This document shows positions 29,583 through 38,393 of a stretch of DNA of 64,000 bases, piece after piece. Positions within the stretch are counted from its first letter, which is position 1; each line of letters starts with the position of its first letter. Source of the DNA: Solirubrobacterales bacterium (lineage in GTDB: Bacteria; Actinomycetota; Thermoleophilia; Solirubrobacterales; Solirubrobacteraceae); NCBI GenBank assembly GCA_025963965.1, contig JAOPZS010000084.1, positions 62,001 to 126,000 on the forward strand, written 5' to 3'. Below the pieces are notes generated by a model that searched no databases, was not told where the DNA came from, and saw only the letters and a list, made by a program, of their open reading frames with translations. The position numbers and the translations under genes were made by a program.

Positions 29583-29668
<86 letters not shown>

Positions 29669-30444: not shown

Positions 30445-30520
30445 GCCGCCGCGCCGAGGCTGCGCACCCCTGTCGCACCTCCGGTTGCCGCGGACCATTC
30501 CGGCCGCTAGCCTCTGAGGT

Positions 30521-30846
30521 GCGGGTCAGGCAGCCGCGGAGGCTTCATGCCTTCGAGGAAAGTCCGGACATCGAAGGGCAGGGTGGTCGAGAGATCGACC
30601 CGGGGAAACCCGCGGGAAAGTGCCACAGAAACAAACCGCCTACGTCCGCCGTCCCACGTGAACGGCGGGCCGGCAAGGGTGAAATGGTGCGGTAAGAGCG
30701 CACCAGCGCCGCGGCGACGCGGCGGCTGGGCAAACCCCACCCGATGCAAGGCCAAACAGGACCGCTTGCAGGCTGCTCGCCAAGGTCCAGGTAGGCCGCA
30801 CAGATGGATGGCTGCTCAATGACAGAATCCGGCTTATCGACCCGCT
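30521..30846 (+). ncRNA. rnpB: RNase P RNA
   Basis: Universal RNase P RNA cores are present: the P4 5' half within GAGGAAAGTCCGGAC near 30555, and the 3' half ACAGAATCCGGCTTAT near 30823. P1 forms between GCGGGTC (30521) and GACCCGC (30839-30845). The conserved GGTAAGAGCGCACCAGC and GCAAGGCCAAACAGG segments lie between. Type A layout is likely. The ends are approximate to a few bases. Confidence 0.93.
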
Positions 30847-30850
30847 AAGG

Positions 30851-30880
30851 AAAGGCCCCGCTCCGGCGGGGCCTTTCTAT
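30851..30880 (+). terminator. rnpB terminator
   Basis: AAAGGCCCCGC (30851-30861) pairs with GCGGGGCCTTT (30866-30876) around a four-base loop TCCG, followed by CTAT. It directly follows the rnpB 3' end. Confidence 0.85.
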
Positions 30881-33172: not shown

Positions 33173-35421
33173 GCGGCAACCTTGAACGATACGCCCGGCC
33201 AAGGCGTCTGTGAACCCTGCTCGTCGTTGCCGAGCGCCAGCCACAGCTCCTCGGCGAGGTGCGGCACGAACGGCCCGAGCATCTGCACGAGCACCGAGAG
33301 CGCCGCGAGCAGCGCGTCGACGTTCGCCGCGCTCAGCCCCGGCTCGCGCGCCAGCACGCGCTTCTCGAAGTCCTTGAGGCGATCGAACAGCCGCATCAGG
33401 TTGCGCACTGCGCTGTGCATCTCGAGGCTCTCCATGTCGGCTGTCGTCCGCTGCACCGCTGCGTCGCACCACTGCGAGAGTTTCAGCCGCAGGTGCTCGC
33501 TCGTGTCCTTCTCGATCGCTGGGCGCTCGGCCTCCGGGCCGGCCAGGGCGAGCTTGTCCTGGCTGTACTCCCAGACCTGTCCGAGGAAGCGGTGGCAGCG
33601 CAGCACGGCCGAGTCGCTCCAGTTCAGCGACTTCTGCGGTCGCGCCGCGAACAGCACTGCCAGCCTCACCGTGTCTGCTCCGTAGCGCTCGACGAGCTCA
33701 TCCGGGTCGACCACGTTGCCGAGATGCTTGCTCATCTTGCGGTTCTCCCGCGTCACCATCTCGTGAAACAGGCATCCGGCGAAGGGCTCGCCGTCGGCCA
33801 GGAACGACAGCGGGCCGAGGTCGCGCAGCGCCTTCGTCACCGTTCGCTGGTCGAACACGAAGTTGCCGCTGTCCGATCCGGCGACGAGCCGCTCCGACGG
33901 CAGCCAGTGGCGCAGGTCCGCGAGCGCCAGGATCTCCTCCAGCGGCTCCCCCCGCGACTCCGGCGGTACGCATGCGGGGATCCACAGCCACAGTGCGTCG
34001 AAGTGGCAGTCGAGCGTGTCGGTCTCGCGGCGCGCCGGGCCGCCGCACTGCGGGCAGGTCGTCTCGACGAACGAGTGCAGCTCCGCCAGCGGGTTGCCCG
34101 TGCCGGTCGGCGTGATGTCGAGCGGCAGCTTGACGGGCAGGTCCTCCTTCGCCACCGGCACCGTGCCGCACTGCTCGCAGTAGACGATCGGGATCGGCGT
34201 GCCCCACGAGCGCTGCCGCGAGATCACCCAGTCGGAGGCCTTGTAGCGAACCGCCTCGCGCGCCCCGGCGGCGGGCCCGGCTGGAGCGGCGGCGTCGCCG
34301 TCGGTGTCCTGCTCTGCGGCCTCCCCGTCACCGCCGCCGGGCAGCCCGAGGCGCCGCGCGAACACCTCGTCGGTGCGGTCCTCGGTGGCGATGCCGAGCG
34401 CGATCGTCGGTCCGAAGCGGGCGTCGACGACCGGCGAGATCACGACCGGGAGCTCGCGCCCCGACGGATCGCTCAGCGTCCCGGCGGCCTCGACCAGCGG
34501 GATCGTCTCGGCATCGCGGGCACTGCGTGCCCAGCCGCCCGAGCGCATCTGCTCGAGTCGCTCGCCGATCGCCGGGTCCGACGCCCAGCGCTCGGCCTCG
34601 GGGTGGCGCGGTGAGATCACGACGAAGCTCGCCGCGCCGGCGGCGCCCGCATGGGGCGTGAAGGCAGTGACGGTCGATCCGTCCGCCGCCGTCAGCTCGA
34701 CCTCGACTCCGTCCACCCGTCCCATCACGTCGAGCTGTGAGTCGAGCGCGAGCTTGTCCCATTTGCCGCTCGCCTCGCGCTGGGCCAGGCGGCTGTCGTT
34801 CTCCGTCACATAGGCGCTGACCTTGAAGTACCACTGCGGAAGCTCGATCAGGCGAACGGGGTTGTGGCATCGCCAGCACGTCCCGCCCGGCTCCACCTGG
34901 ATCGAGGCAAGCGTCGTCTGGCAGTGGTCGCACCAGTCGACTGTGCCTGTGCCGCGGTACACCAGACCGGCCTCGTAGAGCGTCAGGAACAGCCACTGCG
35001 ACCAGCGGTACATGATCTCGTCACAGCTCAGAAACGAACGGTCCCAGTCGAGTGAGAAGCCGAGTCGCTGCAGCTGGCCGGTCATGTGCGCGGCGCAGCG
35101 GTTGACCCACTCACTCGGCGGCTCGCCGCCGGCGATCGCGCCGAGCTCCGCGGGCAGACCGAACGCGTCGAAGCCGAAGGCGAACAGGACGTCGTCGCCG
35201 CGGGCGCGCCTGAAGCGCGCATAGGCGTCGCCGATCGAGTACGAACGGACGTGGCCGATGTGAACGTTGCCCGACGTGAACGGCGCGGAGGGCTTGATGT
35301 ACAGGTGCGGCTGATCCTCCGCCAGGGGCGGCGTCCGGAATGCCTCGCGCTCCGCCCAGGCCGCCTGTCGGCGAGCCTCGACGGCGTGCGGGTCATAGCG
35401 CCTGTCGGGCCCGTCGCTCAC
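33169..35421 (-). CDS. LeuRS-like class I aminoacyl-tRNA synthetase, atypical
   Basis: GTG 35421 follows TATCCT by nine bases, suggesting a leaderless mRNA. The 750 residues contain a literal HIGH box (SGNVHIGHVRS), WCDHC and CWRC zinc-like pairs, DWVISRQRSWGTPIP, and ENRKMSKHLGNVV, so the KMSKS loop ends in His. The CP1 editing region is degenerate: TTRPDT is replaced by AFTPHAGAAG, and GTGAVMxVPAHDxRD by GPTIALGIATEDRTD, after which an Ala/Gly/Asp-rich loop is inserted. The protein stops right after the anticodon-binding domain (PWPGVSFKVAA) and lacks the C-terminal tRNA-binding domain (VxVNGK). It may be the sole LeuRS of the lineage or a paralogue; I cannot tell. Confidence 0.85.
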   Translation of the reverse strand: MSDGPDRRYDPHAVEARRQAAWAEREAFRTPPLAEDQPHLYIKPSAPFTSGNVHIGHVRSYSIGDAYARFRRARGDDVLFAFGFDAFGLPAELGAIAGGEPPSEWVNRCAAHMTGQLQRLGFSLDWDRSFLSCDEIMYRWSQWLFLTLYEAGLVYRGTGTVDWCDHCQTTLASIQVEPGGTCWRCHNPVRLIELPQWYFKVSAYVTENDSRLAQREASGKWDKLALDSQLDVMGRVDGVEVELTAADGSTVTAFTPHAGAAGAASFVVISPRHPEAERWASDPAIGERLEQMRSGGWARSARDAETIPLVEAAGTLSDPSGRELPVVISPVVDARFGPTIALGIATEDRTDEVFARRLGLPGGGDGEAAEQDTDGDAAAPAGPAAGAREAVRYKASDWVISRQRSWGTPIPIVYCEQCGTVPVAKEDLPVKLPLDITPTGTGNPLAELHSFVETTCPQCGGPARRETDTLDCHFDALWLWIPACVPPESRGEPLEEILALADLRHWLPSERLVAGSDSGNFVFDQRTVTKALRDLGPLSFLADGEPFAGCLFHEMVTRENRKMSKHLGNVVDPDELVERYGADTVRLAVLFAARPQKSLNWSDSAVLRCHRFLGQVWEYSQDKLALAGPEAERPAIEKDTSEHLRLKLSQWCDAAVQRTTADMESLEMHSAVRNLMRLFDRLKDFEKRVLAREPGLSAANVDALLAALSVLVQMLGPFVPHLAEELWLALGNDEQGSQTPWPGVSFKVAA

Positions 35422-35467
35422 GATAGTTCGAGGATATCCGAGGGCCTCGCGCGGGCAGCGCCCGTTG

Positions 35468-35559
35468 CTATGCTCAGCAGGACTTGGCTGTCGCCGCCCG
35501 AGCGGCGATCACAGCGCTCCGACGCCCTGTACATGGCCCCGCCGAGAGCGGGGTCTTTT
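35468..35559 (+). promoter_or_regulatory. guaB3 leader with internal terminator, attenuator candidate
   Basis: A -10-like TATGCT lies at about 35469-35474. A hairpin TCGCCGC/GCGGCGA follows around 35510-35528. Then an intrinsic terminator pairs GGCCCCGC (35535-35542) with GCGGGGTC (35548-35555), ending in TTTT at 35556-35559, 28 bases before the guaB3 ATG. A terminator between promoter and coding start suggests attenuation, for example by a purine-sensing RNA. No known riboswitch class was recognised. Confidence 0.5.
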
Positions 35560-35587
35560 CGTCCGTGCCGACTGCGAGGATTCGACG

Positions 35588-36781
35588 ATGGAGATTGAGA
35601 TCGGACGTGGAAAGAAGGGTCGTCGAGCTTATGGTTTCGACGACATCGCGATCGTTCCTTCCCGGCGGACCCGCGACCCCGACGACATCGACATCTCCTG
35701 GAAGCTCGGCCCGTACCAGTTCGAGCTGCCGATGCTGGCCTCGGCGATGGACGGCGTCGTCTCGCCCGAGACGGCCGGCCTGATCGGCCGCCTCGGCGGC
35801 CTCGCCGTGCTCAACCTCGAGGGCATCTTCACTCGCTACGAGGACGCAGAGGAGCAGCTCGAGCGGATCGCCGCGCTGCCCAAGGATCTCGCCACGCGCG
35901 AGATGCAGCAGATCTACCGCGAGCCCGTCAAGCCCGAGCTGATCACGCAGCGGATCCAGGAAATCAAGGAGCAGAAAGTCGTCGTCGCCGCCTCGCTCAC
36001 GCCACAGCGCGTGCTCCAGTGGCACGAGCTCGCGCTCGAGGCCGGTCTGGACGTGCTCGTGATCCAGGGCACCGTCGTCTCCGGCGAACACGTCTCGACG
36101 GTCTCCGAGCCGCTCAACCTCAAGGAGTTCATCCCGAGCCTCGAGGTCCCAGCGGTCGTCGGCGGCTGTGCCTCCTACCACACCGGCCTGCACCTGATGC
36201 GCACCGGCGCCGCCGGCGTGCTCGTCGGCGTCGGCCCGGGCGCGGCCTGCACGACTCGCGGTGTGCTCGGCATCGGCGTGCCGCAGGCGACGGCGATCGC
36301 CGACGTGGCGCATGCCCGCTCGACGCACATGCTCGAGACGGGCGAGTACTGCCAGGTGATCGCCGACGGCGGCATGCGCAACGGCGGCGACGTCTCCAAG
36401 GCGATCGCGCTCGGCGCCGACGCCGTGATGATCGGCTCGCCGCTCGCACGCGCCTATGAGGCTCCGGGCCGGGGCTTTCACTGGGGCATGGCGACCTTCC
36501 ACCCCGACCTGCCTCGGGGCGCGCGCGTCGCGACTACCCAGAACGGCACGCTCGAGGAGATCCTCGTCGGACCGGCTCGCGAGAACGACGGCACGTTCAA
36601 CCTGTTCGGCGGGCTGCGCACCTCGATGGCGACGTGCGGTCACAAGGACCTGGCGGAGTTCAACCGCGCCGAGGTGGTCGTCGCGCCGTCCCTGCAGACC
36701 GAGGGCAAGGCGCTGCAGCGCGATCAGCAGGTCGGGATGGGCGCCACGAACGGGAAGGTCGCAGCCCTCGTCAATGACTGA
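35588..36781 (+). CDS. guaB3: GuaB3-family IMP dehydrogenase-related protein
   Basis: ATG 35588 gives 397 residues. [20 protein letters not shown] opens the GuaB3 form, which lacks CBS domains. The barrel carries [18 protein letters not shown], the catalytic-cysteine loop [38 protein letters not shown] and [18 protein letters not shown]. It ends [10 protein letters not shown]. GuaB3 proteins resemble IMP dehydrogenase and are typical of actinobacteria and cyanobacteria. The exact reaction is debated, but coupling to guaA with an eight-base overlap supports a role in guanine nucleotide synthesis. Upstream lies a possible attenuator. Confidence 0.92.
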
Positions 36782-38393
36782 CGCCGCCGCCACGGCCGTC
36801 GAGCCGGAGGGCGAGCAGCGCCAGCGGATCACGCCTGCGCAGACGGTCGAGCAGGAGATCGTCGTGCTCGACTACGGCGGTCAGTACTCGCAGCTGATCG
36901 CCCGGCGCGTGCGCGACTGCGGCGTCTTCAGCGAGCTGCTGCCCCACCACGTCTCGATCGACGAGGTCGCGGCACGCAAACCGCGCGGGATCATCCTCTC
37001 CGGCGGCCCGGCCTCGGTGTATGCGCCTGGCGCCCCTGCGCTCGACGAGCGCCTGCTCGAGCTGGGAGTGCCGGTGATGGGCATCTGCTACGGCATGCAG
37101 CTGCTGGTCCACACCCTCGGCGGGCGCGTAGAGGAGGCAGAGGTCGGCGAGTTCGGCCGTTCCGAGCTGCACGTCTCAGAGCCCGGCGTGCTGCTCGCAG
37201 GCCTGCCGCGCGAGCAGACCTGCTGGATGTCCCACCGCGACACCGTCTTTGAGCCTCCGCCGGGCTTCACGGCGCTGGCCTCCTCGACCGGCTCTCCGGT
37301 CGCCGCCGTCCAGGACCAGGCGCGCGACATCTACGGCATCCAGTTCCACCCGGAGGTCGTGCACACCCCCTACGGTCAGGAGATCCTGACGCGCTTCTTG
37401 ACGGATGTCTGCGGCTGTGAGCCCAACTGGTCGGCCGCGTCGATCGTCGAGGACCAGATCAGGCGGATCCGCGAGCAGGTGGGGGAGGGGAAGGTCATCT
37501 GCGGCCTCTCCGGAGGCGTCGACTCGTCGGTCGCCGCGCTGCTCGTGCACCGCGCGATCGGCGACCAGCTGACGTGCGTGTTCGTCGACCACGGGCTGAT
37601 GCGCAAGGACGAGGGCGAGCAGGTGATCAAGACGTTCCGCGACACCTTCAAGGTGGCGCTCGTCGCCGTCGACGCCGAGACGCGCTTCCTCGAGAAGCTG
37701 CAGGGCGTGACTGAGCCCGAGGCCAAGCGCAAGGCGATCGGCGCCGAGTTCATCCGCGTCTTCGAGGAGGAGGCCGCAAGGCTCGCCGGCGACGGCGAGG
37801 GCGCCCGGTTCCTCGTCCAGGGCACGCTCTACTCCGACGTGATCGAGTCCGGCGGCGGCACCGGAGCCGCGACGATCAAGTCACACCACAACGTCGGCGG
37901 CCTGCCGGACGACCTGCAGTTCGAGCTCGTCGAGCCGCTGCGTGCGCTGTTCAAGGACGAGGTCCGCGCGGTCGGCGCCGAGCTCGGCCTGCCGGAGCGC
38001 CTCGTCTGGCGCCAGCCGTTCCCGGGCCCCGGTCTCGCGATCCGCGTCGTCGGCGGCGAAGCCACGCGCGAGCGCCTCGACGTCCTGCGCGAGGCCGACC
38101 ACATCCTTCAGGAGGAGATCCGCAAGGCCGGTCTCTACCGCGAGCTTTGGCAGTCCTTCTGCGTGCTCCCCGACGTCCGGACCGTCGGCGTGCAGGGTGA
38201 CGAGCGCACATACGGCTACGTCGTCGTCGTCCGCGCCGTCACCAGCGACGACGCGATGACCGCCGACTGGGCCCGCCTCCCGTATGACCTGCTCGAGACG
38301 ATCGCCTCGCGCATGATCAACGAGCTGCGCGAGGTCAACCGGGTCGTGCTCGACATCACGTCCAAGCCCCCCGGCACCATCGAGTGGGAGTGA
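36774..38393 (+). CDS. guaA: GMP synthase (glutamine-hydrolysing)
   Basis: ATG 36774 overlaps the guaB3 stop (ATGACTGA). The 539-residue enzyme has a class I amidotransferase domain ([19 protein letters not shown], nucleophile Cys in [11 protein letters not shown], His/Glu in [11 protein letters not shown]). An ATP-pyrophosphatase domain carries the P-loop [16 protein letters not shown]. The dimerisation domain ends KPPGTIEWE. It turns XMP into GMP using glutamine. The first 25 residues form an acidic extension. It is co-transcribed with guaB3. Confidence 0.96.

What the first reader, a model, noticed from the sequence alone, without database searches (positions are those of the whole stretch)
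35468..35587. Possible attenuator in front of guaB3-guaA
An intrinsic terminator with TTTT sits between the likely promoter and the guaB3 start, preceded by another hairpin. That is the layout of transcription attenuation by a purine-related ligand or protein. No known riboswitch consensus was recognised.
Basis: partly seen in the sequence, partly recalled or inferred. Interest (0 to 1): 0.5.

Follow-up and report, generated by a model that had tools for sequence, protein, structure and literature searches.

The report
Terminator leader upstream of guaB3
A short RNA that folds into hairpins and ends at a built-in stop signal sits in front of two guanine-making genes in this bacterium and many relatives, and it probably helps control those genes, although a second start site next to the gene can bypass it.

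Summary
Alone they are no better than chance; relatives make them real. In the family (Solirubrobacterales, inferred from named records) an extended -10 box (P1) is followed by a 65-80 nt leader with a 5' hairpin (A) and an intrinsic terminator (B). On 30 leaders chosen for having both, 96% of paired cells hold and 11 of 17 pairs have changes on both sides. An A-loop motif and B go together (27 of 32 leaders with B, 3 of 43 without). The layout recurs in another order of the class: 13 of 13 leaders have P1, a strong terminator and a normal ribosome-binding site. No Rfam family matches at its threshold.
Against the simple reading: no alternative antiterminator fold is visible (B probability 0.8 or more in 52 of 52 leaders), and in the window's order a predicted leaderless promoter (P2) lies between B and the ATG. 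So the attenuator reading is partly supported; the signal is unknown. In the window's genus the element is decaying: 6 of 22 leaders lack B, and 14 of the 16 that keep it lack an unbroken TTTT.

The parts
35466..35474 (+). P1: extended -10 TGC-TATGCT; transcript start predicted about 35480-35482 (inferred)
   Evidence: 16 of 16 g1 leaders with hairpin B have TG(C/A)TATGCT; strict TGNTANNNT between -160 and -40 in 71 of 97 family leaders; in another order the box is in 13 of 13 leaders, 11 with TTGA at -35 distance
35487..35515 (+). upstream hairpin (core 35491-35508), at about the place of family hairpin A but without its conserved loop
   Evidence: family hairpin A has changes on both sides in all 5 outer pairs; weakly supported in g1
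35535..35555 (+). hairpin B, intrinsic terminator stem-loop
   Evidence: model R2 hit 35496-35563, E 3.3e-4 in the own genome
35556..35559 (+). U-tract TTTT of hairpin B
   Evidence: unbroken TTTT in 2 of 16 g1 leaders with B, this one and L014
35561..35565 (+). GTCCG, a P2-linked box at -27 from the ATG
   Evidence: at exactly -27 in 19 of 22 g1, 51 of 80 other family and 16 of 39 other-family leaders
35573..35581 (+). P2: extended -10 TGC-GAGGAT, predicted to start a leaderless guaB3 mRNA at the ATG; AGGA could also serve as a Shine-Dalgarno
   Evidence: NAnnnT at -12 in 22 of 22 g1 leaders, TAnnnT at -12 in 58 of 80 other family leaders; T-12 and TG(-15,-14) never occur together among the 100 leaders with A-11 and T-7
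35588..36781 (+). guaB3 (GuaB3 family IMP dehydrogenase-related protein)
   Evidence: TIGR01304, 527 bits, cut-off 342
36861..38393 (+). guaA (GMP synthase), matched part with stop codon; its start codon was not determined
   Evidence: NF000848, 784 bits, cut-off 400

Best explanation
This is a two-promoter control region. P1 makes an RNA that folds into a 5' hairpin (A) and, after about 65-80 nt, runs into intrinsic terminator B, so by default most P1 transcripts should stop before guaB3. Those that read through would express guaB3-guaA, and an unknown trans-acting factor or ligand that recognises hairpin A (loop GUUGCC or CGCAA in much of the family) probably sets how many do. In this order a second promoter, P2, sits just past the terminator and starts a leaderless guaB3 mRNA, giving a basal supply that B cannot touch. 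Shown from sequence: conserved structure, terminator, P1 and P2 boxes, linkage to guaB3. Inferred: termination in vivo, read-through, a sensor, and the division of labour between P1 and P2. In the window itself hairpin A has lost the family loop, so P2 may carry most of the load there.
For: Covariation: 96.3% of cells paired, 11 of 17 pairs with changes on both sides against 5.9 in shuffles (0 of 500 as high), slid structures 2-4. A-loop motif and B co-occur: 27 of 32 with B, 3 of 43 without (not corrected for ancestry). Linkage: 38 of 38 places with E up to 0.0013 in 146 family genomes lie directly 5' of guaB3, one per genome; 30 of these leaders built the model, 8 did not. Terminator-like hairpins by one criterion: 14 of 22 (g1), 42 of 75 (other family), 13 of 13 in another order (f6), against 15%, 18% and 3% of shuffles. 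In f6 the hairpin lies between P1 and a GGAGG-like site in 13 of 13, so read-through seems needed. Leaders with B nearly all have a P2 box: 31 of 32, against 32 of 43 without B.
Against: No competing antiterminator: B forms with probability 0.80-1.00 in 52 of 52 leaders that met the script's hairpin and P1 criteria (three are duplicates). No ligand or protein identified. Patchy: B in 32 of 75 other-family leaders and 16 of 22 in the genus; in families f2, f4 and f9 terminator-like hairpins are about as common as in shuffles or rarer, or only slightly commoner (1 of 17, 0 of 4, 2 of 10). P2 could make B irrelevant to guaB3 output. In f6, 4 of 13 leaders have a TAnnnT just after the T-tract, so a second promoter there is not excluded. 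T-tracts are short in most family members. The covariation alignment was fitted to the model and its rows were chosen for having both hairpins; the unfitted genus alignment is much weaker. No transcript data.
Confidence: 0.5

Rival explanations
1. B is a constitutive terminator and P2 is the real guaB3 promoter. The P1 unit only affects P2 at the DNA level: a polymerase terminating at B covers P2 (interference), or is handed on to P2 after release (relay).
For: A P2 box accompanies B in 31 of 32 leaders; B has no competitor fold; the T-tract abuts the GTCCG box in both f1 and f3. RNA polymerase recycling after intrinsic termination is described in PMC6978380 and PMC6978322 (search listing and abstract starts only).
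Against: It does not explain the covarying hairpin A with a conserved loop, nor a terminator at the same place in f6, where 9 of 13 leaders have no TAnnnT after it. No helical phasing of P1-P2 distances (714 of 5000 null draws as good).
Confidence: 0.22
2. P1-A-B is a small RNA gene of about 70 nt acting in trans, with a C/U-rich single-stranded linker between the two hairpins.
For: Own promoter, two hairpins, terminator, pyrimidine-rich linker in many members; B always predicted to form.
Against: Directly 5' of guaB3 in 38 of 38 strong places; no other hit better than E 0.003 in the family, order and class searches, which used strict filters; the linker is not sequence-conserved.
Confidence: 0.15
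3. The inverted repeats are DNA operators for a purine repressor, not RNA.
For: A CCGCAAA-GCGG-like repeat also lies upstream of the P1-like box in some f2 leaders.
Against: Arms of hairpin A change together while the loop stays; an operator would be expected to keep its arms. B has a T-tract and its stem sequence differs between families.
Confidence: 0.07
4. Ribosome-mediated attenuation through a leader peptide, at least in genera g8 and g9.
For: In g9, 7 of 7 leaders share one frame between the A loop and B, and 2 of 3 scored g8 leaders share it (the third, L043, looks like a wrong anchor of the script). By eye an open frame runs from a GTG or TTG through B to a stop at the P2 box in several of these (sequences).
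Against: Frame differs within g22 (2 of 4 against 2 of 4) and between L041 and L058 in g14. By eye, many differences among the g9 leaders fall on second codon positions.
Confidence: 0.04

Closest known systems
Terminator-controlled purine leaders, e.g. the purine (G-box) riboswitch, RF00167 (recalled as the standard example)
   Same: Structured leader plus intrinsic terminator in front of purine genes
   Different: No Rfam match at gathering thresholds in the window and 41 relatives nor at a relaxed one in the window's leader; no antiterminator seen; different anatomy
Protein-dependent attenuators such as PyrR or ANTAR leaders (recalled)
   Same: Small hairpin with a conserved loop followed by a terminator
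   Different: Loop UUGCCG or CGCAA does not resemble the PyrR or ANTAR consensus as I recall it; no antiterminator; protein unknown
Yfr1, cyanobacterial small RNA (PMC1242208, passages seen)
   Same: Very short RNA with its own promoter beside a guaB gene
   Different: Yfr1 lies downstream of guaB, between guaB and trxA
Leaderless actinobacterial promoters with TANNNT -10 boxes (PMC3160421, PMC3898074, search listing and abstract starts only)
   Same: P2: TANNNT 6 nt before the ATG
   Different: Here it directly follows a terminator fed by a second promoter, and carries a GTCCG box at -27

Membership tests
Transcription attenuator (generic) | Promoter upstream of an intrinsic terminator inside the leader of the gene | tested here: met
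   (by sequence)
Transcription attenuator (generic) | Mutually exclusive antiterminator fold | tested here: not met
   B probability 0.80-1.00 in 52 of 52; a trans-acting factor would not need one
Transcription attenuator (generic) | Regulated read-through | not testable with these tools
   needs transcript or in vitro data
Transcription attenuator (generic) | No promoter between terminator and gene | tested here: inconclusive
   P2-like box in the window's order; in f6, 4 of 13 leaders have a TAnnnT after the terminator and 9 do not
Known riboswitch classes (Rfam 15) | Match to the covariance model | tested here: not met
   no match at gathering score in the guaB3 leader of the window or of 41 relatives; one hit far below threshold (mir-587, 24 bits against 80, E 0.15) falls in the leader of L271; the M-box hits lie over 1 kb away
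Leader-peptide attenuation | Conserved short reading frame | tested here: not met
   not kept across the family; kept in g9 and perhaps g8
Yfr1 small RNA | Rfam model match | tested here: not met
   whole-library scans, (that Yfr1 is in Rfam is recalled)
Leaderless promoter | TANNNT box at -12 with the start at the ATG | tested here: inconclusive
   box in 58 of 80 other-family leaders; in g1 A-11 and T-7 in 22 of 22 but T-12 in only 3; the start site itself is not testable here

The most novel reading that the evidence does not exclude
An undescribed class of structured leader RNA, present in several families of the class Thermoleophilia, senses a guanine-nucleotide signal (GTP, GMP, PRPP or (p)ppGpp, directly or through a protein bound to hairpin A) and sets read-through into guaB3-guaA. 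In Solirubrobacterales it is coupled to a leaderless promoter directly behind its terminator, so one locus has a regulated leadered and a constitutive leaderless mRNA.
Probability: 0.3. Interest if true: 0.65.

Novelty: new member of a known kind. Interest (0 to 1): 0.48.

Why it matters
My searches of the held papers found no description of how the guaB3-guaA branch to GMP is controlled in these bacteria (listings only). A conserved leader with its own terminator is a direct, testable entry point. The pairing of a terminator with a predicted leaderless promoter immediately behind it also offers a natural test of how termination and reinitiation interact.

Tried and rejected
Tried without success: Rfam at gathering and relaxed thresholds; SD sequestration by GUCC:GGAU pairing (rejected by eye: GTCCG stays where GGAT becomes CGGT in g22 or GCT in L017; sequences); a family-wide leader peptide; helical phasing of P1-P2 distances (714 of 5000 null draws as good); antiterminator search by ensemble probability; element copies at other genes (best other hit E 0.003; of the loci fetched, one weak hit outside the family, L127 in f3, E 0.034, is at guaB3); a wider P2 regulon by pattern (39 places in 34 of 61 genomes, 29 of them at guaB3 by coordinates, none in the own genome). 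A pairing of the RNA 5' end with the linker, alternative to hairpin A, was seen in folds of L040, L062 and L093 and not tested further.

Rows left out or doubled: L021 and L194 (too short), L031 (duplicate of L001), nine duplicates among L142-L154 (three of them still counted); alignment A1 uses 30 of 32 prepared leaders (L069, L106 left out) of 75 other-family leaders; A5 15 of 16 (L014 left out); A6 10 of 13, some with the ATG clipped. L075, counted as having B, looks like a chance hairpin, and L106 does not appear in the with-B lists. One search lists 17 g1 leaders, two of them (L019, L024) with unrelated hairpins and without L014; by eye it is 16 of 22. One search anchored L015 wrongly; its tail (TCTTCTCG) is. 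One search was translated one base off and replaced. One search gave an empty reference for L061 and a long one for L047, corrected by hand. One search failed on wrong coordinates and answered the same question.

Full report
The observation. guaB3 starts at ATG 35588 and guaA follows. Upstream lie TGC-TATGCT (35466-35474), a hairpin at 35491-35508, and a terminator-like hairpin at 35535-35555 followed by TTTT. From this window alone the terminator is not beyond chance (1 found, 0.4 expected, sd 0.7), and the leader folds no better than shuffles (z -0.33). Everything that follows rests on relatives.

Genus and family. In 24 genomes of the genus, 23 had a match to guaB3, one of them (G017) only weak (E 8.7e-7); 22 leaders were long enough to read. 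Sixteen of 22 keep hairpin B near its place and the P1 box; six lack it, and L009 has P1 and the GTCCG region with the hairpins missing. An unbroken TTTT follows B in 2 of the 16, the window and L014 (L015). In the family, 112 of 121 searched genomes gave a guaB3 match at E up to 1e-150 and I read 75 leaders outside the genus, plus five more of the family in later counts. A recurring plan appears: TGNTANNNT, hairpin A, a pyrimidine-rich linker, hairpin B with T-tract, GTCCG, TANNNT, six bases, ATG. The P1-to-B leader is 65-79 nt in 51 of 52 cases scored (100 in L004), counted from a predicted start.

Structure. A covariance model from seven leaders found 33 of 97 guaB3 loci at E up to 0.001, three of them in the genus. 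Thirty family leaders chosen for having both hairpins were aligned to it. On that fitted alignment 96.3% of cells pair, 11 of 17 pairs show changes on both sides (shuffles 5.9, 0 of 500 as high), and sliding the partners drops pairing to 32-56%. All five outer pairs of A and four of eight pairs of B have such changes. The fitting favours the structure. The unfitted genus alignment gives weaker support: B is paired in 100% of cells but five of its eight pairs never vary, the helix before it is 62% paired, and an A-like helix as I drew it 37%. The loop of A is GG-UUGCCG-CC in one set and CGCAA in another. In 75 leaders these motifs go with B: 27 of 32 with B and 3 of 43 without (not corrected for shared ancestry).

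Spread. Model R2, built from the 30 leaders, finds 51 of 146 family genomes at E up to 0.05 (strict filters). All 38 places with E up to 0.0013 lie directly 5' of guaB3, but 30 of those 38 built the model. In searches of 121 genomes of the order and 149 of the class, both including the family, the hits with E below 0.003 are all in the family. The DNA pattern of B plus GTCCG occurs on seven stretches in the genome collection; six are beside guaB3, and in the seventh (L233) no guaB3 N-terminus was found. Named records include Svornostia abyssi (Thermoleophilia, Solirubrobacterales) and a Conexibacter MAG, which is how I place the family. Sister family f3 has a similar leader with five or six T after the hairpin in at least five of 18 (L163, L164, L165, L167, L169, by eye). 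Family f6, in another order, has TGGTA or TGCTA boxes in 13 of 13 leaders, TTGA at about -35 in 11, a hairpin mostly of the form AGACCC-C-GG.../...CC-C-GGGUCUUU, and a GGAGG-like site in 13; 13 of 13 pass the terminator criterion against 3% of shuffles. In f5, 4 of 10 pass, three of them with ACCCAGGC-type hairpins (L264, L265, L271). In f2 (1 of 17), f4 (0 of 4) and f9 (2 of 10) terminators are not clearly commoner than in shuffles (19%, 15% and 6%).

The second promoter. At exactly -12 from the ATG, TAnnnT stands in 58 of 80 family leaders outside the genus, against at most 5 of 80 at other offsets from -20 to -6; within the genus NAnnnT stands there in 22 of 22, TAnnnT in only 3. Of 21 family leaders without an AGGA, GGAG, GAGG or AAGG, 13 still have TAnnnT at -12, so ribosome binding does not explain its conservation there. 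In the genus the 19 leaders without T at -12 all have TG at -15/-14, whereas the 58 family leaders with T have none: a likely compensation through an extended -10, although it may be one ancestral event. GTCCG at -27 seems to belong to P2, since it often stays when A and B are gone. The pattern GTCCG-TAGGAT-ATG is found mainly at guaB3 (29 of 39 places). P2 is therefore a predicted leaderless promoter behind the terminator. The start itself is not shown.

How it probably works. P1 transcripts should mostly stop at B. B is predicted to form in every leader tested (0.80-1.00, 52 of 52), so if read-through is regulated the switch is not a visible antiterminator but something that acts on A or on the polymerase. 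In f6, 9 of 13 leaders show no TAnnnT between terminator and gene, so read-through probably feeds the gene there. In the window's order P2 would supply a leaderless mRNA regardless. This is why I call the interpretation partly supported. In the window itself hairpin A has lost the family loop while B and its TTTT remain; whether P1 still matters there is open.

Known or new. No Rfam family matches the leaders at its threshold (window and 41 relatives; one hit far below threshold in L271). Searches of the held papers for guaB3 with leader, guaB with attenuator and riboswitch, guaB RNA motifs, attenuation with guaA or IMP dehydrogenase (27 papers, 12 listed), Solirubrobacter with noncoding RNA, and GuaB3 with IMP dehydrogenase showed no title or abstract start describing it. 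Yfr1 is beside guaB in cyanobacteria but downstream of it (passages of PMC1242208). I file this as a new member of a known kind: a terminator-bearing leader RNA, with an unusual leaderless promoter behind it.

Noticed in passing
window 35421-35445, - strand: leuS (divergent) has TATCCT 9 nt before its GTG start, so it too may be nearly leaderless; several relatives show TATGCT there.
   Followed up: partly
window 35465-36781: guaB3 is open upstream of its ATG to a TTG at 35465, so automatic annotation could call a start inside the leader.
   Followed up: no
L040, L042, L055, about 5-22 bases upstream of the P1 -10: Palindrome CGGTTCCGTACGAACCG near the -35 region of P1 (complete in L040, with one or two changes in L042 and L055), a possible operator.
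   Followed up: no
f2 guaB3 leaders such as L146, L156, L166, L178: CCGCAAA-GCGG-like inverted repeats upstream of the P1-like box, similar to the CGCAA loop of hairpin A in part of the family.
   Followed up: partly
L241, L244, L250, L252, L262: M-box (magnesium) riboswitches more than 1 kb from guaB3, on the opposite strand, in five f6 genomes.
   Followed up: no
L228 (CAMCUD010000011.1): Record titled Bifidobacterium breve holds a guaB3 locus like this family's, and its contig length (134242) equals that of contig C11 of family genome G033; probably a wrong title.
   Followed up: partly
L233 (CAIFES010000006.1): Terminator-plus-GTCCG pattern in a record titled Aeriscardovia, without a guaB3 N-terminus found in the stretch.
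   Followed up: no
window 30518-30852 and 29583-29668: RNase P RNA (+ strand) and a tRNA (- strand).
   Followed up: no
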